Positions 1,293 to 47,775 of a stretch of DNA of 64,000 nucleotides are shown in pieces. The notes under the pieces are model-generated. The model made no database searches. It saw nothing but the letters and a program-made list of their open reading frames with translations, and was not told the origin of the DNA. Within the stretch, counting starts at the first letter, position 1. Each line of letters opens with the position of its first letter. The DNA lies in NCBI RefSeq assembly GCF_048771995.1, contig NC_133028.1, positions 1,828,001 through 1,892,000 of the forward strand, read 5' to 3'. The stretch is from Taeniopygia guttata. Taxonomy: Eukaryota > Chordata > Aves > Passeriformes > Estrildidae. A program made the position numbers and the translations under genes.

Positions 1293-1439
1293 CTGCTGCG
1301 GGAGGAGCTGCTGAGCTGCGGGACGGTGCTGCAGATCTCGGAGCTGCCGGACTCGGGATTCTCTGAGCAGGACCTGAAGCGGCTGGTGCAGCCCTTCGGG
1401 AAGGTCAGCGACCTGATCCTGCTGCGCTCCCGCAACCAG
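1293..1439 (+). CDS. ZNF638: ZNF638 exon: first RRM, N-terminal half
   Basis: 49 codons, phase 0 in and out, between acceptor CCGCGCAG and donor CAG|GTACGG. Encodes [20 protein letters not shown] (beta1/RNP2 and helix 1) and then [18 protein letters not shown] (beta2). The intron cuts the RRM just before beta3/RNP1, which lies in the exon at 2621. The exon frame stays open to 1949, so extended forms using some downstream donor copies would not stop early. Confidence 0.93.
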
Positions 1440-4400
1440 GTACGGGAATTTGGGAATTTGGGAATTTGGGATTGGGAATGGGGGATTGGGATTGGTGCAG
1501 CCCTTCGGGAAGGTCAGCGACCTGATCCTGCTGCGCTCCCGCAACCAGGTACGGAAAAATGGGAATTTGGGATTGGGAATGTGGGATTGGGATTGGTGCA
1601 GCCCTTCGGGAAGGTCAGCGACCTGATCCTGCTGCGCTCCCGCAACCAGGTACGGAAAAACGGGAATTTGGGAATTTGGGATTGGGAATGGGGGATTGGG
1701 ATTGGTGCAGCCCTTCGAGAAGGTCAGCGACCTGATCCTGCTGCGCTCCCGCAACCAGGTACGGGAATTTGGGAATGTGGGATTGGGATTGGGAATGGGG
1801 GATTGGGATTGGTGCAGCCCTTCGGGAAGGTCAGCGACCTGATCCTGCTGCGCTCCCGCAACCAGGTACGGGAATTTGGGAATGTGGGATTGGGATTGGG
1901 AATGGGGGATTGGGATTGGTGCAGCCCTTCGGGAAGGTCAGCGACCTGATCCTGCTGCGCTCCCGCAACCAGGTACGGGAATTTGGGATTGGGAATGGGG
2001 GATTGGGATTGGTGCAGCCCTTCGGGAAGGTCAGCGTCCTGATCCTGCTGCGCTCCCGCAACCAGGTACGGCAATTTGGGAATTTGGGATTGGGATTGGG
2101 ATTGGGGGATTGGGAATGTGAGATTGGGAATGTGGGCATGGGAATGGGAAACTGGGATTGGGAATGTGGGATTTGGATTGGGAATGTGGGTTTGGGATTG
2201 GGAGTCCGGGATCCAGCGTTCCCAAAGATCCCTCCGGGCGATTTGGGATTGGGGTCAGCAGTTCCCTCTTGCAGTTCTGGGATTTTATGGATTTTTCCTC
2301 TTCCCCTTTCCCATTTTCTCTTTTCCCCTTTTTTTTCTCTTTTTCCTTTTCCCTTTTCCAATTTTCCCTTTTCCCCTTTTCCCTTTTTTTTGCTCTTTCC
2401 TCTTTTCCCCTTTTCCCCTTTCTCCTTTTTTCCCTTTCCCCCTTTTCCCTTTTCCCTCTTTTTCCCTTTCCCCCCTTTGTTCTCCCTTTATTCCCTTTAC
2501 TCCCCTTTCCCCCTTTTCCCCCTTTTCGTTTTTTCTCTTTTATTCCCTTTTCCCTCCCAATTCCCTGAACCCCCCGAAATCCCGGGAACCCCGGGAATCC
2601 CGGGAATTCCGTGGCCCCAGGCGTACCTGGAGATGAACTACAAGGAGGCCGTGATCGCCGCCGTCAAGTTCGCCGAGACGGCGCCGGTGCTGCTGAACGG
2701 GAAACGCGTCCGGGTCTGCGTGGCCGAGAGAGCCCCGGTGGGACAGCGCCCGGGATTCCTGCTGCTGGGAATTCCTGCTGCTGGGAATGCTGCCTGGGGA
2801 TCCTGCTGGGAATTCCTGTTGGGAATTCCTGCTGGGAATGCTGGCTGGGGTTCCTGCTGGGAATTCCTCCTGGGAATGCTGGCTGGGGTTCCTGCTGGGG
2901 GTTCCTGCTGGGAATTCCTGCTGGGAATGCTGACAGGGGGTTCCTGCTGGGGGTTCCTGCTGGGAATTCCTGCTGGGAATGCTGACAGGGGTTCCTGCTG
3001 CTGGGAATTCCTGCTGGGAATGCTGACAGGGGGTTCCTGCTGGGAATTCCTGCTGGGAATGCTGACAGGGGGTTCCTGCTGGGAATGCTGACAGGGGATT
3101 CCTGCTGGGAGTTCCTGCTGGGAATGCTGAGAGGGGATTTCCTGGGAATACTGAGAGGGAATTCCTGCTGGGGAATGCTGGCTGGGGTTCCTGCTGGGAA
3201 TTCCTGCTGGGAATGCTGACAGGGGGTTCCTGCTGGGAATTCCATCTGGGAATGCTGACAGGGGGTTCCTGCTGGGGGTTCCTGCTGGGAATGCTGAGAG
3301 GGAATTCCTGCTGGGAATTCCTCCTGGGAATGCTGAGAGGGGATTTCCTGGGAATACTGAGAGGGAATTCCTGCTGGGAATGCTGAGATGGGATTCCTGC
3401 TGGGAATTCCATGGGAAATCTGCGAGAGGATTCCTGCTGGGAGTTCCTGCTGGGAATTCTGACAGGGGATTCCTGCTGGGAATTCCTGCCGGGGATTCCT
3501 GCTGGGAATGCTGACAGGGGATTCCATGGGAATGCTGACAGGGGATTCCATGGGAATTATTCCTGCTGGGAGTTCCTGCTGGAAATTCTGAGAGGGGATT
3601 CTGTGGGGATTCTGAGAGGGAATTCCTGCTGGGAATTCTGAGAGGGGATTCCATGGGAATTATTCCTGCTGGAAATTCCTGCTGGGAGTCTTGCTGGGAA
3701 TGCTGAGAGGGGATTCCTGCTGGGAATTCTGAGAGGGGATTCTGTGGGGATTCTGAGAGGGAATTCCTGCTGGGAATTCTGAGAGGGGATTCCATGGGAA
3801 TTATTTAATCGTTCACTTCTTTTTTTTTTTTAAATTAATTAATTAAAGTGAATTAACACCAATCATGAATGAATTTTAATTTTCCCCTTGCAGGTAAAGA
3901 AAACGGTGAAGAAGCGAGTGCTGAACCCCAAAAAAACTCCAGCCAGCACCAAGTGAGGCCTGGCTCGTTAATTAGCGCTAACGGCACTAATTGGGGTTGT
4001 TAATTAATAATTCCTCATTAATAATTTGATTTTTGCTGCTTTTTCTCCTGCCAGGAAAATCCCCAGCAGCAGCAGCACCAAGAACCCCAAGGCCCTGCCA
4101 GGTATTAGCAATTAATCACTCATTAGTGCTTAATTAACCTGCCTAATTAATGAATTAATTGGCTGGATTAATTTTAATTTAACAGGAAATTATTGAAATC
4201 CCTTTTTTTTTTTTTTTCCCATATTTCTGGAATTCCTTGGATTTTTTGGGATTTTTTTTTTTTTGGTAGGGAAAAAGGAAAAAGTGAAGAAAATTCCGGG
4301 AGAGAAGAAAGTGAAGAAAACCTCAAATGTGGGAGGTGAGGGGGAAAATGGGAAAAAAAAAAGGGAAAATTCTTGGGGGAAAAAATGGGGAAAAAATTGG

Positions 4401-7400
4401 GAAATAAAAGTTAAAAAGCCTCAGAAAATGGGAAGTAAAAACTTGGGAAAATTGGAAAAGAAAATAGAAGGAAAGTTTAGAAAATGGGAAATAAATTGGG
4501 ATAAAAAGTTGGGAAAATCTTGGGAAAACGGGAAGGGAAAATGGAGGAAAAACTGAGGGAAAAACTTGGGAAAATGGGAAAAGAAAATGGAAAAAAATGG
4601 GGAAAATGGGAAATAAATCTTGGGAAAACGGGAAAAAGCACTTGGGAAAATGGGGGGAAAAAAGGAGAAATAAACCTTGGGAAAATGGCAAAAAAAACAT
4701 GGAAAAAAGGGGGGAAATGGGGAAAGACCTTGGGAAAATGGGAAATAAACCTTAGGGAAATGGGAAAAAATGGGGGGAGAAACTTGGGATAATGGGAAAA
4801 AATGTGGAAAAATGGGAAAAAACCTTGGGGAAATGGGAAAAAAAAAACTGGGAAAATGGGAAAAACCTTGGGAAAATGGGGGGAAAAGTGGGAAAATGGG
4901 GGAAAAAGCCTCGGGAAAATGGGAAAAAACTTGGGAAAATGAGGAAGAAAATGGGGGAAAATTATTGAGAAAATGGGGAAAGATGTGGGGAAAAAAGGGA
5001 AAAACCTGGGGGAAATGGGCAAAAATGGGGGGAAAATCTTGGGAAAATGGGGGGAAAGGGGAAACATTGGGAAAACGGGAAATAAACTGTGGGGAAAAGG
5101 GGAAAAAATGAGGAAATGCTGAAGAAAATGGGAAAAATGGGGGAAAATGGGAAAAAATCTTGGGAAAATGGGGAAAAATCCTGGGGAAATGGGGGAAGTA
5201 CCTTTGAAAAATGGGGGGGAAAAAAGGAAAATGGGATAAAAACATGGGAAAATGGAGAAAAAATGGGGAAAAACCTTGGGAAAATGATGAGAAAATGAGA
5301 AAAAAAGTGGAAAAATGGGAAAAGTGGGAATTGGGAAAATTGGGAATTGGAGAAAGCGAGAATTGGGAACAGCGGGAATGGGAAAATCGGGAATTTTTCC
5401 CTGCAGGAAAAGCAGCGGCTGAAGATTCTGGAGCCGCCGCCGAGGCCGGGCCGGAAACTCCGGGATCGGAGCCCTCAGACCCCAAAAATTCCGAGCCTAA
5501 AAATTCTGACCCCAAAAATTCCCCCAGTCCAGAGGAGCCCGGAACAGCCCCCGAGGAGAGGCCAGGTAATTCCAGGGAAATTCAGGAATTTTGGGAATTC
5601 CGGGTGATTTTAGTGGAGCTGCAATGGAAAAAATGGGGAAATTGGGGAAAAAAAAACTTTTGGGGAATTGGGAAAAGAAAATTGGGGAATGGGGAAAAGT
5701 CCTGGGGGGATTTGGGAAAAAAGTTTGGGAAAATGGGAAAAAAAATGGGGATGGAAGTTGGGAAAATGGGAAAAAAAGAGGGAATGGGAAAGGAAATGGA
5801 AAAAAGGTGGTGAAAAGGAAATGGGGGGAAAAAACTGGGAAAAAAAGTTTGGGGAAATGGGAAAAATTGGCAAAAAGAATTTTTGGGAAAATGAGGAGGA
5901 AATTTGGGGGAAAAAACTTGGGAAAATGGGAAAAGAACTTGGGAAAGGGGGAAAGAAAATGGGAAAAAAAATATGTTAAAATGGGAATTAAAAAGTTGGG
6001 AAATGGGATAAAAATCCTCTGGAAAATGGGGGGGAAATCTTAAGAAAAACTTGGGAAAATGGGGAAAAAATTTGGATAAATTGTCGGGGAAATGGGAAAA
6101 AAACATGGGGAAAAATGGGAAAAATGGGGGAAAAGGGTGTTAAAGGGAATTTGGGAATTCTGTGGGGTCGAGCTGCTCCTTTTCCCCCTTTTCAGAACTT
6201 CCAGTGAGCGAGGAGCCCACGGATCCAGGCGGGAAGGTCAGTGGGGATTTTGTGATTTGGGGGAATTTTGAGGGTTTGGGAATTGTGGAAATTTTGGGGG
6301 TTTGGGAACGGTGGGAATTTGGAAATTGTAGGAATTCTGGGAATTTGGGAATTGGGGAATTGGGGATTTGTAGGAGTTTGGGGGATTTGGGAATTGTGGA
6401 GATGGAGGGAAATTGGGAATTGTGAGAACTGTGGGGATTTGGGAATTGTGGTGGATTTGGTACCAGGATCAGGATTTGGGATGGGGCATCAAGATTTGGG
6501 ATCAGGATCAGGATTCAGGCTCAGGATTTGGGACAGGGATCAGGACCGGGATGGGGATCAGGATCGGGATCAGGATTTGGGACAGGGATCAGGATCAGGA
6601 TTTGGGATGGGGATCAGGATTTGGGACAGGGATCAGGATCAGGATTTGGGATGGGGATCAGGATTTGGGATGGGGATCAGGATTTGGGACCAGGATCAGG
6701 ATCAGCATCAGGATTTGGGACAGGGATCAGGATCAGGATTTGGGACAGGGATCAGGACCGGGATGGGGATCAGGATCAGGATTTGGGACAGGGATCAGGA
6801 TTTGGGACAGGGATCAGTATCAGGATTTGGGACGGGGATCAGGATTTGGGATCAGGATCAGGTTCAGGTTTGGGGATCAGGATTTGGGATCAGGATTTGG
6901 GACGGGGATCAGGATTTGGGATCAGGATTTGGGACGGGGATCAGGATTTGGGATCAGATTTTGGGACAGGGATCAGGACCGGGACGGAGATCAGGATCAG
7001 GATTTGGGATCAGGATCAGGATTTGGAATCAGGATCAGGATTTGGGACGGGGCTCAGGATTTGGGATCAGGATTTGGGATTGGGATTTGGGACCGGGCTC
7101 AGGATCAGGATCAGGATTTGGGATCAGGATCAGGATTTGGGATCAGGATTTGGGACCAGGCTCAGGATTGTGATCAGGATTTGGGACCGGGCTCAGGATT
7201 TGGGATCAGGTTTTGGGACAGGGATCAGGATCAGGATCAGGATTGGGATCAGGATTTGGGACGGGGCTCAGGATCAGGATCAGGATTGGGATCAGGATTT
7301 GGGACGGGGCTCAGGAGCGCTCCATCCCGCAGGACGCTGACCCCGAGCCCTGCTGCGTGCTGCTGGTGTCCAACCTGCCGGCCAAGGGCTGCTGGCAGGA

Positions 7401-10400
7401 GGAGCTCTGCAACCTGGCCCGGCCCTTCGGCGGCCTGCGGGACCTGCTGCTGCTCTCCTCACACAAAAAGGTAAAAGGGAATGGGGATTTGGGATTTTTT
7501 GGGGATTTTTTGGGTTTTTTTGGGATTATTTTGGAATTTTAGGGGATTTTTGGGGAATTTAGGGGGATTTGGCCAAGCCCTTCAGGGGCCTGTGTGACCT
7601 GCTGCTGCTCTCCTCACACAAAAAGGTAAAAGGGAGCGGGGATTTGGGGATTTTTTTTGGGATTTTTGGATAATTTTTTGGGATTTTGGGGGATTTTTTG
7701 GGGTTTTTTTGGGATTATTTTGAAATCTTAGGCGATTTTGGGGGAATTTAGGGGGATTTGGCCAGGCCCTTCGGGGGCCTGCGCGACCTGCTGCTGCTGC
7801 TCTCCTCACACAAAAAGGTACTGGCAGTGGGGGGTTTGGGGGATTTTTTGGCAAGTTTTGGGGATTTTTTGGGATTTTGGGGGATTTTAGGGGGAGTTCT
7901 TGGGATTTTTAGGAGAGTTTTTGGGATTTTTTGGGGATTAGGCCAAGCCCTTCAGGGGCCTGCAGGGCCTGCTGCTGCTCTCCTCCCACAAAAAGGTACC
8001 AGGAATGGGAGGTCTGGGGGATTTGGGATTTTTTGGGGGATTTTTTGGGGATTTTTGGGGATTTTTTGGAAAGTTTTGGGGATTATTTTGGAATTTTAGG
8101 GGATTTTTGGGGACTTTAGGGAGATTAGGCCAAGCCCTTCAGGGGCCTGCAGGGCCTGCTGCTGCTCTCCTCACACAAAAAGGTACCAGGAACGGGAGGT
8201 CTGGGGGATTTGGGATTTTTTTGGGGAATTTTTGGGGATTTTTTAGGGATTTTTGGGGATTTTTTGGAAAGTTTTAGGGATTATTTTGGAATTTTAGGGG
8301 ATTTTTGGGGACTTTAGGGGGATTTGGCCAGGCCCTTCAGAGGCCTGTGTGACCTGCTGCTGCTCTCCTCACACAAAAAGGTAAAAGGGAGCGGGGATTT
8401 GGGGATTTTTTGGGGGATTTTTTGGGGATTTTTTGGGGATTTTTTGGGATTATTTTGGAATTTTAGGGAATTCTTGGGGAATTTAGGGGGATTTGACCAG
8501 GCCCTTCAGAGGCCTGTGGGACCTGCTGCTGCTCTCCTCACACAAAAAGGTACTGGGAGCGGGGATTTGGGATTTTGGAGGGATTTTTGGGGGTTTTTTG
8601 GGATTATTTTGGGATTATTTTGGAATTTTAGGGGATTTTTGGGGACTTTAGGGGGATTTGGCCAAGCCCTTCAGGGGCCTGCAGGACCTGCTGCTGCTCT
8701 CCTCACACAAAAAGGCAAAAGGGAGCGGGGCATTTGGGGATTTGGGGTTTTTTGGGGGATTTTTTGGGATTTTTTAGGGATTTTTGGTGATTTTTTGGAA
8801 AGTTTTAGGGATTATTTTGGAATTTTAGGGGATTTTTGGGGACTTTAGGGGGATTTGGCCAAGCCCTTCAGGGGCCTGCAGGACCTGCTGCTGCTCTCCT
8901 CACACAAAAAGGTACTGGCAGTGGGGGGTTTGGGGGATTTTTTGGCAAGTTTTGGGGATTTTTTGGGATTTTTGGGGATTTTTGGGGATTTTAGGGGGAC
9001 TTCTTGGGATTTTTAGGAAAGTTTTGGGGATTTTTTGGGGATTTGGCCAAGCCCTTCAGGGGCCTGCGGGATCTGCTGCTGCTCTCCTCCCAAAAAAAGG
9101 TACCAGGAATGGGAGGTCTGGGGAATCTGGGATTTTTTTAGAATTTGGGGAGATTTTTGGGGGATTTTTGGGTATTTTTTGGAAAGTTTTAGGGATTATT
9201 TTGGAATTTTAGGGGGCTTTTGGGGACTTTAGGGAGATTTGGCCAGGCCCTTCAGGGGCCTGTGGGACCTGCTGCTGCTCTCCTCCCAAAAAAAAGGTAC
9301 TGGGAATGGGGCAGGGGCAGCTTGGGGATTTTTGGAATCTTCTGGGGATTTTTAGGGAATTTTTAGGGGATTTTTTTTCCAAAGTTTCCCCCCATTTTCC
9401 TGAGAATTTTTATCCCATTTTCCCACCTTTTTTATTCCCATTTTAACAAAGTTTTTCCCATTTTCTTTCTCCCTTTCCTTAAATTATTTTCCCAAATTTT
9501 CCCCTTCATTTCCCCAAATTATTTTTATCAATTTCTCCCATTTTCCCAAGTTTTTTCCAAATTTTTTCCCATTGTTTCCCCCTTCCCCAACTTTCTTCCT
9601 TTCTTTTTTCCATTTTCTGACTTTTTACCCATTTTCCCTTTTTTCCATTTACTTTCCCATTCCTTTTTTTTTCCCATTTTCCCAACTTCCGCCGCCATTT
9701 TATTTTCTGATTTTTCCTAAAATTTTAGGGGATTTTTTGGGGATTTTTGGTGACATTTTTGGAATTTTTTTGGGGGAATTTTGGAGATTTTTGGCGGGTA
9801 ATTTTTGAGAATTTTGAGCGAATCTTGCCGCATCCTTTTGGAATTCCTTTGGGATTTTTCCAAGGGTCAGCGTCAGATCTTTTAGGAATCTGTGGGGGTT
9901 CAGGGGGGATGCTGTGGGGTTTTGGGGTGCATTTTGGGATTTGGGCTGTGTGGCAGGCGTACCTGGAGATCCCCCAGCGAGCGGCCGAGTCCATGGTGAA
10001 GTTTTATGGCTTCTTCCCCATGTGCCTGGACGGGAACCAGCTCCGCATCCGGCCCGAGCCCCGGCACCAGGACCTGCGCGACGAGGTTTGGGATTGGGGA
10101 TTTGGGATTGGGGATTTGGGATTGGGGGATCTGGGTGATTGTGGGGTTCGACGGATTGAGAGAAGCTGGGGAATTTGGGGATTGTGGGAATTGGGGGATT
10201 TGCAGGCAATGGGGAATTGGGGGAATAGGAGGAGTTGGAAATTTGGGGGATTTCTGGGCGTTGAGAGAAGCTGGAGGATTTGGGGATTGTGGAGATTGTG
10301 AGAATTGGGGGATTGTGCGGGTTTGGGGGATTGTGGAGGTTTGAGGGATTGAGAGAACCTGGGGAATTTGGGGATTGTGGGAATTGTGGAGTTTGTGAGA

Positions 10401-13400
10401 ATTGGGGGATTTGCAGGGGTTGGGGAATTGTGGGAATTTAGGGGATTTGGGGAATTGTGGGGATTGAGAGAAGTTGGGGGATTGGGGCAGTTTGGAGATT
10501 TCTGGGGGTTGAGGGAAGTTGGGGATTTGGGGATTGTGGGAGTTTGAGGGAAATGTGGGGATTGGGGGATGGGGGGGATTGAGGGAGTTTGGGGGATTTG
10601 GGAATTGTGGGGGTTTGGGGATTGGGGGAATTGTGGGAAGTTGAGGAATTGTGCAGATTGCGGGAATTGGGGTTTTGGGGGATTTGCGGGTTTGGGGGAT
10701 TGTGGGGGTTGAGGGAAGTTGGGGGATTGGGGGATTGTGAGAATTGGGGGATTTGCAGGCGTTGGGGAATTGTGGGAATAGGAGGAGTTGGAAGTTTGGG
10801 GGATTGGGATTTGGGGGATTTCTGGGCGTTGAGAGAAGTTGGAGGATTTGGGGATTGTGGAGATTGTGAGAATTGGGGGATTTGCAGGGGTTGGGGAATT
10901 GTGGGAATTTAGGGGATTTGGGGAATTGTGGGGGCTTGGGGGAATTGTGGGGATTGAGAGAAGTTGGGGGATTGGGGCAGTTTGGGGATTTCTGGGGGTT
11001 TGAGGGAAGTTGGGGATTTGGGAATTGTGGGGGTTTGGGGATTGGGGGAATTGTGGGAAGTTGGGGAATTGTGCAGATTGTGGGAATTGGGGTTTTGGGG
11101 GATTTGTGGGTTTGGGGGATTGTGGGGATTGAGGGAAGTTGGGGAATTTGGGAATTGTGGGGGTTGGGGGAATTTTGGGGATTGGGGGAATTGTGGGGAT
11201 TGAGGGAAGTTGGGGGATTGGGGGCGTTTGGGGAATTTGGGAATTGTGGGGGTTTGGGGGGATTGAGAGAAGATGGGGAATTTGGGAATTGTGGGGTTTG
11301 GGGAATTTGGGGGAGTTTTAGGACATTCTGGGAATTTGGGGATTGCAGGGATTGGGGAATTGTGGGGATTTTGGAAATTGTGGGGACTGTGGGAATTTTA
11401 GGAATTGGAGTTGGAGGGTTTGGGGGAATTGTGGGATTGAGGGAAGTTGAGTTTGAGAGTTGGGAATTTTGGGAATTGGAGGAATTTTAGGAGTTGGGGG
11501 CATTGTGGGAAGGTGGGGAATTTGGGAATTTGGTGATTGTGGGGAATTTTGGGAATTGGGGGATTGAGGGAAATTGGGGCATTTTGGGGATTGTGAGAAT
11601 TTAGGAATTTGGAGATTGTAGGAATTGGAGGAATTGTGGAAAAAACTGAGAAAAAATCCCCAGTTTTCCACTTCAAGCAGGACTTGAGATTTAAATAGAA
11701 TTTAAATAGAATTTTTAGCGCTTCTGGAGTTTAAAACAAGGGATTTTTTTCCACCTGGGAATTGATCCTGGGAAATATTATTTTGGATTTTGACATTATG
11801 AACATATTAATTATGATTGATTAGTCAGTGATTAATTATTAGTCAATTATTACTTATTATTAATTAAGCTCCAATCCCTTTTTTCTCTCCCTAAAGGAAG
11901 CGATTTTCCTGTCCCTCATCAAGGATTCTGATCCCAAGGTGAGTTTTCCTCATTAGCCCATATTTTTTCTCATTTTATCCCAATTTTCTTTGGAATTTAA
12001 TTAACTGGGAGCTGGGAGTGCTCATTCCTGAGCATTTCAGGTTGGGATAAATCACATTTTATCCCCGGAATGGGATTTTTTGGGATTTCCAGAATCTCCC
12101 TTTGATCCTTTCAGAATTCCAGGATTTATTAAAGGATTTTCTCAAGTGACTCAGAGGTTTTCTCACTAAAAAAAAAAGTGCTGAAAAGTTCAAAATGGAA
12201 ATGGGGAATTTATCTCAATTCCAGCTCAAAACTCCATTCTTTTATAGATGGAGAGAGGATTTTTTTCCCTTCTCCCCTTTTTCCCCCTTTTTCCTCTTCC
12301 TTTTCCCCCTTTTCCCTTTTCTTCCCTTCCTTTCCTCTTTTCCTCCCTCTCCCCCATTTCCCCCCTTTTTTCCCCCTTTTTTCCTCCTTTTTCCCCCACT
12401 TTTTCTTCCCTTTTTTTCTCCTTCCTTTTCCCCCTTGTTTCCATTCTTTCACCCTTTTCCTATTCTTTCCCCATTTTTTTCCATTCCCTTTTCCCCCTTT
12501 CCTTCTCCTCTTTCCCTCTTTCTCCCTTTATTCCCATTTTTTCCCTTTTTCCCCCTTTCCCCTTCTTTCCCTTTCCCTTTTCCCCTTCTCCTTCCCTTTT
12601 CCTTCAATTTTTCCTTTTCCTCCTTTTTTCCTCCTCCCTTTTCCCCCTTTCCCTTTTTCCCTCTTTCGCCATCTTTATTCCATTTTCCCCTTTTCTTCCT
12701 TTCCCTCCTTTTTTTCTCCTTTCCTTTTTTTCCATTTTTCCCTATTTCCTCCTGTTCCCCCCTTCCTTTTTTTTCCTTTTTTCCTCTTTTCCCCTCTTTG
12801 TTCCATTCCCCCCCTTCTTTTCTCCTTCCTTTTTTCCTTCTTTCCACTTCTTCCCCTTCCCCTTTCCTCTTTCCCTTCCTTCATTTTCTTCTCTCTTTTT
12901 CCCTCTTTACCCTTCTTTTTCCATTTTCTCCTTTCCCCCCCTTCCCCCCCTTTTCTCCCCTTTTCCCCCTTTTCCTTCCCCACCCTTTTCCCTCCTTGCC
13001 CCCTTTCCCCCCTTTCTCCCCCTTTTTTTCTCCTCCTGTTTTTTCCCTTTTCCTTCCTTTTCCCCTTTCCCCTTTTTCCCCCTTTCTCCCCCTTTTCTCC
13101 TTTCCCCTTTTCCCTCCTTTCCCTGCTTTTTCTGCTTCTTTTCCCCTTCCTTTTTTCCCTTTTCCCCCCTTTCCCCTTGTTCCCCCTTTTTCCTCCTTCC
13201 CCCCTTTTCCCTTTTTTCCTCCTTCCCCCCTTTTCCCTTTTTTCCTCCTTCCCCCCTTTTCCCTTTCCCCCCTTTTCCCCCTTTTTTCTCTTTCCTTTTT
13301 CCCCCTTTCCCCCTTTTCCCTTCTTTTTCCCCTTTCCCCCCCATTCTCCCCCTTTCCCTTACCTCCACTTTTCCCCCATTCCCCTGTTTTTCATCCTTTC

Positions 13401-16400
13401 TGCCCGCTTTTCCCCCCTTTTTTCTCCTTTTTTCCCTTTTCCCCCTTTTTCCCCCCTTTCCACCTTTTCTCCCCTTCCCTCCCCTTTTCCCCCTTTTCCA
13501 CCTCCCCACTTTTTCCCCTTCCCCCCTTTTTCCCCTTCCCCCCTTTTTTCCCCTTCCCCCTTTTCCCCCCTTCCCGCCCTTTTTTTCTCCTCTTTTTCCC
13601 CTTTTTTTCCCCTTTTTTTTCCTTTTTCCCCCTTTTTTCCCTCCCCTTTCCCTGCTAACCCCGGGATCTCTCCTGCAGGTGGACACCTCCTCCCTCCGCT
13701 CTCACCTGGTGCACCTGGGGAACCTCCCGGCCGAGGGATTCCGGGAGCTGGAGCTGGTCTGTGCCGGGCTGCGCTTTGGGAAAGTGGAGCACTACGCCGT
13801 GCTCAGCAACCGCCGCCGGGTACTGCCCCTCAGGGGGAAAAATGGGAATTTTGGGAGATTTTTGGGGATTTTTTTGGGAATTTTTAATTGGGTTTTGCTG
13901 GAGGGGCTCCCAGAGCTGGAGCTGGTCTGTGAGGGCTGCGCTCCGGGAAGGTGGAGCACCACACCTGAGGGAAAAATCGGCTTTTTGTGGGGAAAATTGG
14001 GGTTTTCAGGAAAATAAAAGCCTGGTAATTTTTGGGGGGATTTTTGATGGACTTTTTTTGGGAATTTTTTCTTGGCGGAGAGGAGCTGGAGCTGGTCTGT
14101 GAGGGCTGCACTTCAGGAAGGTGGAGCGCTACACCATGCTCAGTAACCGCCCAGTGCCTGAGAGAAAAATCAGCTTTTTGTGGGGAAAATTGGGGTTTGC
14201 AGGGAAATAAACCCTGGGCATCTTTGGGGGGGAATTGTGGGGTTTTTTTGGGGGATTTTTGATGGATTTTTTGGGGAATTTTTAATTGGGTTTTGCTGGA
14301 AGGGCTCCCAGAGCTGGAGCTGGTCTGTGAGGGCTGCGCTCCGGGAAGGTGGAGCACCACGCCTGAGGGAAAAATCAGCTTTTTGTGGGGGAAAATTGGG
14401 GTTTTCAGGAAAATAAAACCCTGGCACTTTTTGTGGCGATTTTTGATGGACTTTTTTTGGGAATTTTTTCTTGGGTTTTTGGTGAAGGGCCTCTGGGAGC
14501 AGGAGCTGGTCTGTGAGGGCTGTGCTTCAGGAAGGTGGAGCACCACACCATGTTCAGTAACCGCCCAGTGCCTGAGAGAAAAATCAGCTTTTTGTGGGGA
14601 AAATTGGCGTTTGCAGGGAAATAAACCCTGGGAATCTTTGGGGGGGATTGTGGGGTTTTTTGGGGGGATTTTTGATGGATTTTTTTGGGAATTTTTAATT
14701 GGGTTTTGCTGGAGGGGCTCCCAGAGCTGGAGCTGGTCTGTGAGGGCTGCGCTCCAGGAAGGTGGAGCATCACGCCTGAGGGAAAAATCGGCTTTTTGTG
14801 GGGGAAAATTGGGGTTTTCAGGAAAATAAAAGCCTGGCAATTTTGGGGGGGATTTTTGATGGACTTTTTTTGGGAATTTTTTCTTGGGTTTTTGGCGGAG
14901 AGGAGCTGGAGCTGGTCTGTGAGGACTGTGCTTCAGGAAGGTGGATCACCACACCGTGCTCAGTAACCGCCCAGTGCCTGAGAGAAAAATCAGCTTTTTG
15001 TGGGGAAAGTTTGGGTTTGCAGGGAAATAAACCCTGGGAATCTTTGGGGGGGATTGTGGGGGGGTTTTTTTGGGATTTTTGATGGATTTTTTTGGGAATT
15101 TTTAATTGGGTTTTGCTGAGGGGCTCCCAGAGCTGGAGCTGGTCTGTGAGGGCTGTGCTCCGGGAAGGTGGAGCACCACACCTGAGGGAAAAATCGTTTT
15201 TTTTTGTGGGGGAAAATTGGGGTTTTCAGGAAAATAAAACCCTGGCAATTTTGGGGGGGATTTTTGATGGACTTTTTTTGGGAATTTTTTCTTGGGTTTT
15301 TGGCGGAGAGGAGCAGGAGCTGGTCTGTGAGGGCTGCGCTTCAGGAAGGTGGAGCACCACACCGTGCTCAGTAACCGCCCAGTGCCTGAGAGAAAAATCA
15401 GCTTTTTGTGGGGAAAATTTGGGTTTGCAGGGAAATAAACCCTGGGAATCTTTGGGGGGGATTGTGGGGATTTTTTATGGATTTTTTTGGGAATTTATTA
15501 TTGGGTTTTTGGCAGAGGGGCTCCAGGAGCCAGAGTGGGTCTGTGAGGGCAGTGCTTCAGCGGGGTGGAGCACCACGCCTGAGGGAAAAATCAGCTTTTT
15601 GTGGCGGAAAATTGGGGTTTGCAGGGAAGAAATATCTGGGAATGTTTGGTGGATTTTTGGGGGCATTTTTGGTTAATTTTTTGGGGGGAATTTTTAATTG
15701 GATTAATTTTAAATGGATTTTTGGCAGAGGGCCTCTGGGAGCTGGAGCTGGTCTGTGAGGGCTGTGCCAGGTACTGCCCTGTGCCTGAGGGAAAAATGAG
15801 CTTTTTTGGGGGAAAATTGGGGTTTGCAGGGAAAAAAAACCCCACAAAAATCAGGGAATCTTTAGGGGGATTTTTTCGGGATTTTTGATGGATTTTTTGG
15901 GAATTTTTTCTTGGGTTTTTGGCAGAGGGGCTCCCAGAGCTGGAGCTGGTCTGTGAGGACTCTGCCAGGTACTGCCCCGCGCCTGAGGGAAAAATCAGCT
16001 TTTTGTGAGGAAATTGGGGATTGCAGGGGAAAAAAAAACTGGGAATCTTTCAGAAGATATTTTGGAAAATTTTTGAGATTTTTTTTCAATTTGTTGGAGG
16101 ATTTTTTTTTTTTTACCATTGGGGGATTTTATTATTGGGATTTTTGATTAATTTTTGGGGGGTTTTTGATGGATTTTATGGGCAATTTTGAAGGTGTTTT
16201 GGAATTTTTTGTGGGGTTTCTGAGGGATCTTTTTGGAATTTAATGGGGTTTTTTGGGATATTTACTGAATTTTGGGGGGGTTTGATGGATTTTTTTTTAA
16301 ATTTTTGGGGGATTTTCAGAATTTTTTGGCAATTTTTTTGGTAATTTTTGAGGTTTTTTGGGAGGATTTTGAGGGTTTTTTTAATTCTAGGGGGATTTGG

Positions 16401-19400
16401 GGAGGATTTTGAAGGATTTTTAAAGGATTTTTTAGTGGATTTTTTTTAATTTTGGGGATGTTTTTCCAAATTTTGGGGCAATTGTGAATGTTTTGGGAGT
16501 TTTTGGGATTTTTCAGGAATTTTGGGGGATGTTGTGGGGAATTTTTTAGAAATATTTAGAGGGGTTTTGATGGATTTTTGAGGCATTTTGAGGGGGTTTT
16601 GAGGACTTTTTGGGAATTTTTTTGGAGGGTTTTTTGGGAACTTTGGGGATCTCTTTTGAAATTTTGGAGGATTCTCTGGGAATTTTGGGAGATTTTTTTG
16701 TTTTGTTTTGTTTTTTTTTTTAATTTTGGGGGCTTTTTAAATTTTTTGGCAGATTTGGGGGGGATTTTTTTATGGGATTTCCGGGAATTTTGGAGAATTT
16801 TTTTTTTGGGGGGGGAGATTTTCTTTGAATTTTTGGTGGATTTTTTGGCAAGTTTTGATGTATTTTGGGGTATTTCTCTGAATTTTTGGGGAGGATTTTT
16901 TGGCAATTTCTTGTGATTTTTTGGGAAATTTTGGGGGGGGGTTTTGGCAGTTTCTTGGAATTTTGAGATTTTTGTAGCATTTTGAAAGTATTGGAATGGC
17001 AGAATTGATGGGGTTTTTGTGGGATTTTCTAGGTATTAGATCCAAAAAAAACCACGGAAATGGTTTTTAAATTAAAAAAAAAAAACTGAGGAAAATGTCT
17101 TTCAATCCCAAAAAAACATCTGAAGAAAAGCAAGGGAAATATCCTTTAAATCCCAAAAAAACCAAGAAAACATTTTTAAAATCCAAAAACAAAAAGAAAA
17201 ACCCTATAGAAATATTCTTTAAAATCCAAGAAAAATGTCATTTCAATCCCAAGCAAACAAGGAAAATACCCTTTAAATCCCAAAATCCATTGCAAATGGA
17301 TTTTAAATCTGTAAAAAATCCAGAAAATGTTTTGAAAATCTCCAAATCCAATAAAAATATCTTTCAAATCCCAAAAAACCCAAGTTAGTTCCACTTTTAG
17401 GACCCAAATTAGGACGTTTCAAGGTGACTTATAACCCTTTTTACACCTGGATGGTGGCAGGAAACAAGCGAGGATTCCCCCAGCTTTAGGAATTCCTATT
17501 ATTTGATCCAGAAATTACCAGGAATTTTTTCTCTCAGGCCAGGTTTAGGAATTCCCATTATTTGATCCAGAAATTAGGGAATTACCAGGAATTCTTTCCC
17601 CTCAGGCCAGGTTTAAGAATTCCCCTTATTTTATCCAGAAATTACCAGGAATTTTTTTCTTCAGGCCAGATTTAGGAATTCCCATTATTTGATTCATAAA
17701 TGAAGGAATTACCAGGAATTTTTAAAGGAATAACCAGGATTTTTGTTAGGAATTACCAGGATTTTTTTCCCTTGCGCCAGGTTTTGGAATTCACATTATT
17801 TTATTCAGAAATTAAAGAATTACCTGGATTTTTTTCCCTCAGGCCAGGTTTAGGAATATCCATTATTTGATCCAGAAATGAAGGCATTACCAGGAATTTT
17901 TTAAGGAAGTACCAGGAATTTTTTAAGGAATTACCAGGAATTTTTAAAGGAATTACCTGGAATTTTTTTCCCCCAGGCCATCCTGCAGCTGGACAGCCCC
18001 AAATCCGCCCGTTCCATGTACAGCTTCCTGCAGCAATATCCTTATTCCATAGGGGATCACACCCTCACCTGCTCCTTGTCCTCCCACGGAGAAATTCCTG
18101 AGGTAAAAATTCCACATTTTCCACCAGCTGGGGTTTTTTTTGGGATGGGAGAACCTTTGGGAGAACCTTTGCCTCCTTTGGGGTGGTGGGATGTGAGAAT
18201 CCCACCCTGATCCCTCTGGAATTAGAAAATCCTGACCTGGGGTTTTGTTTTCCAGGCTGAAACCGGGAAAAGGGAAGTGAAGAGAGAGGATGGGAACAAA
18301 GGAAGGTACGGCCTGCGGGAATTTTTGGGAATTTTATCCATTTATTTTCCCTCTTGGAATGTTTATCCACAATTAGGGATTGCTGAGCCTCCCTCCAGCT
18401 GTGTCCTGCTGCTCCTCCTTCCCAATCCATGTGCTCCAGAGCCAAAATACTTAGGATTCATTAAAAAAAAAAAACATGGAAAAATGTGGAGAAATCCCAA
18501 TTTTTGTGGAGTTTTCCTTCGCCTGCTCAAGTCCTGGCTCCTCCTGTTGCTTTTATTCCATCCTGCATCTCTTCCCTCTATCCCTGCCTCTGGAATTCCT
18601 CTTCCAAACTGCTGAATTCCCAGAAATTTTTAGGAATTTTTGTTAAATATGGCTTTGATCCCTTTTTTCTGTGATTCCAACTCGGATTTCTGGATGAGTT
18701 TTGTTGTTAAAACCCCGAAACTGTGTAAGGATGATCCTAAGGAATTCCATTATGGAAAAGCTCTGTATTCCCAGATCCCGTTTCTTTCCTTGTCATTCCA
18801 TGAAACTGCTGAATTTTGAGAGCATTAATTCCCAAATTAACGGGAATCTCTTCCTTACAGCCACTTCTTGATTCCAGAAAAGTGGAATTAAAATTTAAAA
18901 AGTTACTTTTCCATGAATCCCAGCTCCTGAAAAGTTGGAAAATCAACATTTTTCCCTGCTCCACACATTTTCCACATAATTGATTCCATTTCTTAGGGAG
19001 CAGAAAACAGCTAAATTATTATTTTAATTATTAATTATTTTTCTGAAGCTTTAATTAATTAAACTTCACTCCTGGGCTCTGCCTTTCCCAGGCTGTGTTT
19101 CCCATGAATCCCAGGATTTTTCCATGAATCCCAGTAGAAAACAAATCGAGCACAGCCAGAAATGTTGAATTGATGGGAAAAATCTCTCTCGATTTTTTTT
19201 GGGATCTTTTGGAGGATCCCAAATCCCACTCTCCTGGACAATCCTGAGTTTTTCCAGGTTTTGGAGTAGAAATTCCCTCTGGAATTCTGCTGGAATGGGT
19301 GGGTGCTCCAAGCACAGCCATCCCTAATTCCAGCACTTCCCAAGCTCATCCTGTGGGATTCTTTCCTTCAGGGAAGAGTCTCTGGAATTCCCTGGAAAGC

Positions 19401-30186: not shown

Positions 30187-47775
<17,589 letters not shown>

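What the first reader, a model, noticed from the sequence alone, without database searches (positions are those of the whole stretch)
1293..17976. The same exon-edge amplification in all three RRM introns of ZNF638
Each RRM is encoded by two exons split by a phase-0 intron at the homologous point, just before beta3 (AYLEM, AYLEI, AILQL). In each case, and only for these homologous introns within ZNF638, the 3' end of the upstream exon plus the donor region has been copied in tandem into the intron, giving 8, 11 and 12 copies with the real one. Two arrays start at the same codon of the domain (the PFG motif: QPFGKV and RPFGGL). The three exons are old paralogues, no longer alike at DNA level, so this looks like three independent events at equivalent sites. 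That points to a property of the position (splicing, R-loop or nucleosome structure, or selection for decoy donors) and not to chance. I know of no described system like this.
Basis: partly seen in the sequence, partly recalled or inferred. Interest (0 to 1): 0.85.

Follow-up and report, generated by a model that had tools for sequence, protein, structure and literature searches.

The report
Exon-edge copies in bird introns
The ends of three exons of a bird RNA-binding gene have been copied in tandem into the introns beside them, a real but already described kind of DNA instability in repeat-filled bird genes, here seen three times at matching places in one gene.

Summary
By the published "exon stuttering" screen, 22 copies in these introns pass the cut-off; 0 of 4 distal hits do, and shuffled introns reach 28.2 bits.

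The interpretation mostly fails. This is the sequence/exon stuttering described in chicken by Hron et al. 2026 (PMC12954441). It is not confined to RRM introns or donors. An exon just upstream of the window, taken as ZNF638's, has an acceptor-anchored array (19 hits, 11 confident), and so has an RBM42-like exon on a 4.2-Mb contig. That was the only true case among 51 other RRM exon places examined, of 150 listed. The positives lie in repeat-saturated sequence. Copied donors decay, which argues against selected decoys.

Unexplained: all three RRM introns are among four positive introns of 20 (nominal p 0.0035, or 0.018 among introns of 1 kb or more; post hoc), and two arrays start at the same base of the domain.

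The parts
1293..1439 (+). ZNF638 RRM1, upstream exon; its last 56 nt are the source of array 1
   Evidence: Borders and frame; 6sxw match
1440..2620 (+). RRM1-splitting intron; 6 copies starting at 1493, 1594, 1703, 1810, 1917 and 2010 (array 1, youngest)
   Evidence: 103-111 bits; tandem-repeat coverage 0.91
2621..2737 (+). ZNF638 RRM1, downstream exon (AYLEM)
7333..7470 (+). ZNF638 RRM2, upstream exon; its last 49-56 nt are the source of array 2
7471..9956 (+). RRM2-splitting intron; 10 copies between 7570 and 9309 (array 2)
   Evidence: 58-76 bits; coverage 0.82
9957..10085 (+). ZNF638 RRM2, downstream exon (AYLEI)
13679..13819 (+). ZNF638 RRM3, upstream exon; source of array 3
13820..17976 (+). 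RRM3-splitting intron; 11 degenerate copies between 13901 and 15955 (array 3, oldest)
   Evidence: 6 reach 42.1 bits; coverage 0.78
17977..18102 (+). ZNF638 RRM3, downstream exon (AILQL)
41778..44371 (+). Intron of the M14 carboxypeptidase (CPX-type) gene with a weak donor-side capture below the published cut-off
   Evidence: Exon-edge score 16 against a null maximum of 11; no hit in the published screen

Best explanation
These are three cases of exon stuttering, the exon-involving form of avian sequence stuttering. In repeat-saturated, GC-rich bird gene regions, introns grow by local tandem duplication. Sometimes the duplicated segment spans an exon-intron border, so the edge of the exon and its splice site are carried into the intron and multiplied with it. 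Shown: the copies are local, direct and tandem; the exon stays intact; the arrays differ in divergence from their exon (98-100%, 89-94% and about 85-90%). Inferred: a first duplication joined the G/T-rich intron repeat to the exon at a short shared word (TGG in arrays 1 and 2), and slippage or unequal exchange then multiplied the unit. The outermost real splice site stays in use because the coding exon must survive: a donor-side duplication leaves the first border whole, an acceptor-side one the last. The copies need no function; they are by-products that may give occasional alternative donors. That all three RRM introns are hit is then mostly chance within a stuttering-prone gene, possibly helped by similar words at the exon edges.
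For: The published description fits feature by feature. Its screen, repeated here on 42 exons and 40 introns, gives 44 proximal hits, 33 of them confident and all in four introns, with 0 of 4 distal hits confident and a shuffled maximum of 28.2 bits. Acceptor-side cases: a non-RRM exon upstream and an RBM42-like exon on C35. Repeat coverage of the three introns is 0.78-0.91. Samples at 1.55-2.1 Mb of C5 are repeat-rich (7 of 7, 0.23-0.89), nine samples outside are not (0-0.17); RRM loci L020, L022 and L027 on the same contig have coverage 0-0.009 and scores no higher than the null maximum. Arrays 1 and 2 start at TGG in 6 of 6 and 7 of 10 copies, TGG being unique in exon 1 and one of three in exon 2.
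Against: C5 is 73.8 Mb long, whereas 190 of 236 chicken cases lie on dot chromosomes. All three RRM introns being among four positives of 20 has nominal p 0.0035 (0.018 among 12 introns of 1 kb or more). In the published cut-off the CPX and VPS16 genes, equally repeat-rich, have 0 of 20 positive introns, and another repeat-rich RRM locus, L024 (coverage 0.75), scores only 20 against 18: repeat richness alone does not suffice. Length variation between individuals, a main feature in chicken, could not be tested. The short-shared-word step rests on two arrays; three of ten array-2 copies do not show TGG.
Confidence: 0.85

Rival explanations
1. A property of the RRM-splitting border (exon-edge sequence, R-loop, nucleosome or splicing kinetics) makes it a recurrent duplication site, on top of general stuttering.
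For: Three of three RRM introns positive; two arrays start at the same base of the domain; G-rich sense strand over most of 1-17 kb.
Against: A non-RRM exon of the same gene is copied at its acceptor. Of 51 other RRM exon places only one was positive, and at the acceptor before beta1. Neighbouring introns with the same G-rich skew, such as 10086-11896, carry no exon copies.
Confidence: 0.09
2. The copied donors are kept by selection, as decoys that slow splicing or as sites for in-frame isoforms.
For: Array 1 keeps 6 of 6 donors at full strength, and two of them (1650, 1866) would extend the exon in frame without a stop.
Against: Array 1 is too young to tell. In array 2, 8 of 10 donors are weaker than the real one by a recalled weight matrix, one has lost GT, donor bases +1 to +6 differ in 9 of 50 cells against 55 of 558 in the whole exon part and 6 of 280 in its last 28 nt, and 10 of 10 read-throughs meet a stop. 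In array 3 the junction is gone from 11 of 11 alignments.
Confidence: 0.03
3. The arrays, or their place on C5, are assembly artefacts.
For: Array 1 copies are almost identical. Most listed contig lengths are multiples of 2500, which suggests computer scaffolding (inference). The repeat-rich block is an island on C5.
Against: Arrays 2 and 3 have diverged copies and array 1 has uneven spacing (93-109 bp), which simple misassembly would not make. There is no N in the window or in the C5 samples. The paper checked the PHF8 arrays of chicken in raw nanopore reads. A misplaced island would leave the arrays themselves real.
Confidence: 0.03

Closest known systems
Sequence stuttering / exon stuttering in chicken (Hron et al. 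2026, Genome Biol Evol 18:evag038, PMC12954441)
   Same: Lateral part of a coding exon with its splice site copied in direct tandem through the adjacent intron; exon part, copy number and span within the published ranges (20-187 bp, 1-44 copies, 112-23,555 bp); coding exon intact; intron full of local repeats.
   Different: A large contig (73.8 Mb) instead of a dot chromosome; another species (unnamed); three homologous introns of one gene; length variation between individuals not tested. ZNF638 is not named in the main text; its supplementary gene list was not open to me.
Minisatellites
   Same: Imperfect tandem units of about 100-200 bp of local origin, with short shared words at the unit border in two arrays.
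   Different: The unit includes coding sequence and a splice site. (General knowledge, recalled; the search was read as a listing only.)
Intron gain by tandem genomic duplication (PMC4974935 and PMC3443670, seen as search listing only)
   Same: Tandem duplication of a segment that holds coding sequence and a splice signal.
   Different: No new intron: the intron stands at one aligned column in three paralogous RRMs and so is older than the arrays.

Membership tests
Exon stuttering (Hron et al. [quoted passage not shown]
   all 33 confident hits lie in the adjacent intron, plus-strand search; the 4 distal hits are not confident. Inverted copies were not searched in these calls.
Exon stuttering (Hron et al. 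2026) | BLASTn-short hits of 20 nt or more, at least 42.1 bits and above the shuffled control | tested here: met
   6, 10 and 6 hits in the three introns; shuffled maximum 28.2 bits over ten shuffles. Exons were annotated by hand, and repeats were not masked by RepeatMasker as in the paper.
Exon stuttering (Hron et al. 2026) | Source at the exon border (more than 90% of published cases within 1 base) | tested here: inconclusive
   Arrays 1 and 2 run across the donor. Array 3 hits end 5 nt or more before the border (exon nt 136 of 141 at most), and the upstream acceptor array starts at exon nt 25, behind a run of CAGCCG units.
Exon stuttering (Hron et al. 2026) | Coding exon itself unaltered | tested here: met
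   Three open frames with AG/GT borders; RRM1 aligns with 6sxw over residues 12-83
Exon stuttering (Hron et al. 2026) | Intron heavily covered by simple repeats | tested here: met
   Coverage 0.91, 0.82 and 0.78
Exon stuttering (Hron et al. 2026) | Dot-chromosome location (strong association, 190 of 236 introns; not a requirement, 36 on macrochromosomes) | tested here: inconclusive
   C5 is 73.8 Mb; the window lies in a dot-like island seen at 1.55-2.1 Mb; correctness of the placement not tested
Exon stuttering (Hron et al. 2026) | Intron length varies between individuals | not testable with these tools
   One assembly, no reads
Selected decoy donors | Copied donors more conserved than their surroundings | tested here: not met
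   the cells are not independent events
Intron gain by tandem genomic duplication | A new intron inside a formerly continuous exon | tested here: not met
   Intron at the same aligned column in three paralogous RRMs; that it is therefore old is inference

The most novel reading that the evidence does not exclude
Exon stuttering is not random among borders. Paralogous exons that keep the same codons at their edge (a Leu codon read as CTGG, three codons before PFG) share the word at which the intron repeat invades, so the same border is hit again and again. Homologous exon edges would then act as recurrent duplication breakpoints, giving a natural replicate for the mechanism of stuttering.
Probability: 0.12. 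Interest if true: 0.6.

Novelty: new member of a known kind. Interest (0 to 1): 0.36.

Why it matters
In the library searched, exon stuttering is described in one paper, of 2026, on chicken, and its authors call the mechanism speculative. This locus adds a gene with four stuttered introns at visibly different divergence, three of them at equivalent borders, and acceptor-side cases in the same gene and in an RBM42-like gene. It suggests that the process also works in a dot-like island on a large contig, and the array starts give a testable lead on breakpoints (short shared words).

Tried and rejected
Decoy donors and in-frame isoforms: tested by donor decay and read-through frames, not supported. 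RRM-specific effect: tested on 52 RRM items (51 distinct places) of the 150 listed, within about 1.45 kb on each side. Of the four high scores, L030 is real; L014 is a run of N read as a match, so that locus could not be judged on that side; L016 and L017 are two RRMs within one exon. DNA likeness between the exons as a cause: distal hits reach only 28.2 bits. Intron gain: rejected, see the membership test. Self-similarity over the whole window marks 28 segments, among them most long introns, and so does not separate exon copies from plain minisatellites; Tandem Repeats Finder alone has the same limit. In one search six further edges of 64 beat their null maximum by 1 to 5 points (donors 4335, 36946, 41777 and 54049; acceptors 37234 and 41480); none of the six passes the published cut-off, so I do not count them. 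GC of exon edges does not separate the copied borders from several uncopied ones. L059 (10 kb further upstream) showed no clear exon. Some borders of the last ZNF638 exons (21429, 23608, 25459, 25843) are off by a base or two; none of these exons has a hit. The searches were read as listings, apart from the one paper. Li et al. 2022 (PMC9021737) is not held. Species names, chromosome identity and the names RBM42, NAT8 and CPX are recalled or inferred.

Full report
What is there. The window is bases 1,828,001-1,892,000 of C5, a 73.8-Mb contig of an unnamed 1.14-Gb, 41-contig assembly. That it is a bird is inference from gene content and contig sizes. On the plus strand lie ZNF638 (RRM1 matches the solved ZNF638 RRM, E 9e-22), an M14 carboxypeptidase gene (CPX-type, recalled), an acetyltransferase gene (NAT8-like, recalled) and VPS16 (Pfam hits). 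Tandem repeats cover 62% of the window.

The three arrays. Each RRM is split by a phase-0 intron at one aligned column. Behind RRM1's first exon there are 6 copies of its last 56 nt with the donor region, 98-100% identical, starts 93-109 bp apart. Behind RRM2's there are 10 copies, 89-94% identical. Behind RRM3's there are 11 degenerate copies; the six confident ones are 84.5-89.6% identical except a 21-nt piece at 100%. Exon-only edges scored 45, 39 and 28 against their own introns and at most 18, 13 and 12 against other introns of the window.

What it is. [quoted passage not shown] exon parts 20-187 bp, 1-44 copies (PMC12954441; I read the abstract, sections 7, 9 and 16, part 1 of 2 of section 8, and found passages). 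A search for the two terms found this paper alone. I repeated its screen, without its repeat masking, on 42 hand-annotated exons and 40 introns (20 of ZNF638, one of them partial; 8 of the CPX gene; 12 of VPS16): 44 proximal hits, 33 at or above 42.1 bits, in four introns; 4 distal hits, none confident; shuffled maximum 28.2 bits. Four of 40 compares with 190 of 5,572 (3.4%) dot-chromosome introns in the paper. All four are in ZNF638; the CPX gene and VPS16 have 0 of 20.

Not RRM-only and not donor-only. The fourth positive intron lies just upstream of the window. It ends at L058:7857, before an exon (L058:7858-8189) that codes an RS-rich stretch; I take it as ZNF638's because its open frame ends in phase 0, as RRM1's exon begins, but no homology search confirmed it. 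It carries 19 acceptor-side hits of 20-29 nt, 11 of them confident; many of the copied acceptors have lost their AG. A search for RRM exons over the genome scored 150 places, of which I could examine 51. One more true case appeared: an RBM42-like exon (name recalled; RRM_1 by Pfam) on the 4.2-Mb contig C35, with seven acceptor-side copies by Smith-Waterman, of which BLAST finds 3 of 20 nt or more and 1 confident. Three other high scores were a run of N or paired RRMs within one exon. RRM loci elsewhere on C5 (L020, L022, L027) have repeat coverage 0-0.009 and no copies. Against a simple rule that repeats suffice, L024, with coverage 0.75, has no clear copies (score 20 against 18).

Setting. 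Samples of 2 kb at 1.55-2.1 Mb of C5 show repeat coverage 0.23-0.89 and GC 0.55-0.66 (7 of 7), against 0-0.17 in nine samples of 2-2.5 kb at 0.3-1.45 and 2.3-10 Mb. The window thus lies in a dot-like island on a large contig. Whether the island belongs there is not verified.

Mechanism. Array 1 begins at the only TGG of exon 1 in 6 of 6 copies; array 2 begins at one of the three TGGs of exon 2 in 7 of 10 copies, the others reading AGG or TGA. Upstream of the junction stands the G/T-rich intron repeat. This fits a first duplication between short shared words, with later growth by slippage or unequal exchange; that step is inference. A duplication across a donor leaves the first border whole and one across an acceptor the last, so the exon survives either way. 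Donor decay argues against selection for decoys: in array 2, 9 of 50 donor cells differ, against 55 of 558 in the exon part and 6 of 280 in its last 28 nt, and 8 of 10 donors are weaker than the real one by a recalled weight matrix. These cells are not independent events. G-rich skew, which might favour R-loops, covers most of 1-17 kb, yet introns such as 10086-11896 share it without exon copies.

What remains. All three RRM introns are among the four positives of 20 ZNF638 introns: p 0.0035, or 0.018 among the 12 introns of 1 kb or more. Arrays 1 and 2 both start 56 nt from the donor, at the second base of an aligned Leu codon. Both facts were picked after the fact; I leave them as a lead, and as the bold reading: homologous exon edges as recurrent breakpoints.

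Verdict. A true feature and a good example of a newly described kind; not a new system.

Noticed in passing
L058:1700-8189 (about 8.3 to 1.8 kb before window base 1): Acceptor-side exon-edge array before an exon coding an RS-rich stretch; 19 hits of 20 nt or more, 11 confident.
   Followed up: yes
L060 (C35:1152501-1160500, minus strand): An RBM42-like RRM exon with seven acceptor-side copies in the preceding intron.
   Followed up: yes
C5:1.55-2.1 Mb: A repeat- and GC-rich, dot-like island on a 73.8-Mb contig; sampled stretches outside it are ordinary.
   Followed up: partly
1650 and 1866: Two copied donors of array 1 would extend the RRM1 exon in frame, without a stop, by 210 and 426 nt. Use unknown.
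   Followed up: partly
17475-17976: Repeats before RRM3's downstream exon include the acceptor region; score 27 when 30 intron bases are in the query, but only 9 with exon bases alone.
   Followed up: partly
40621-42992: In the CPX-type gene, intron minisatellites on both sides of exon 41480-41777 hold words like the exon edges: donor score 16 against 11, acceptor 12 against 11; below the published cut-off.
   Followed up: partly
43300-44120: A long AT-rich stretch of TA and TATAA-type repeats inside a GC-rich gene region (read; GC 0.18 at 43-44 kb).
   Followed up: no
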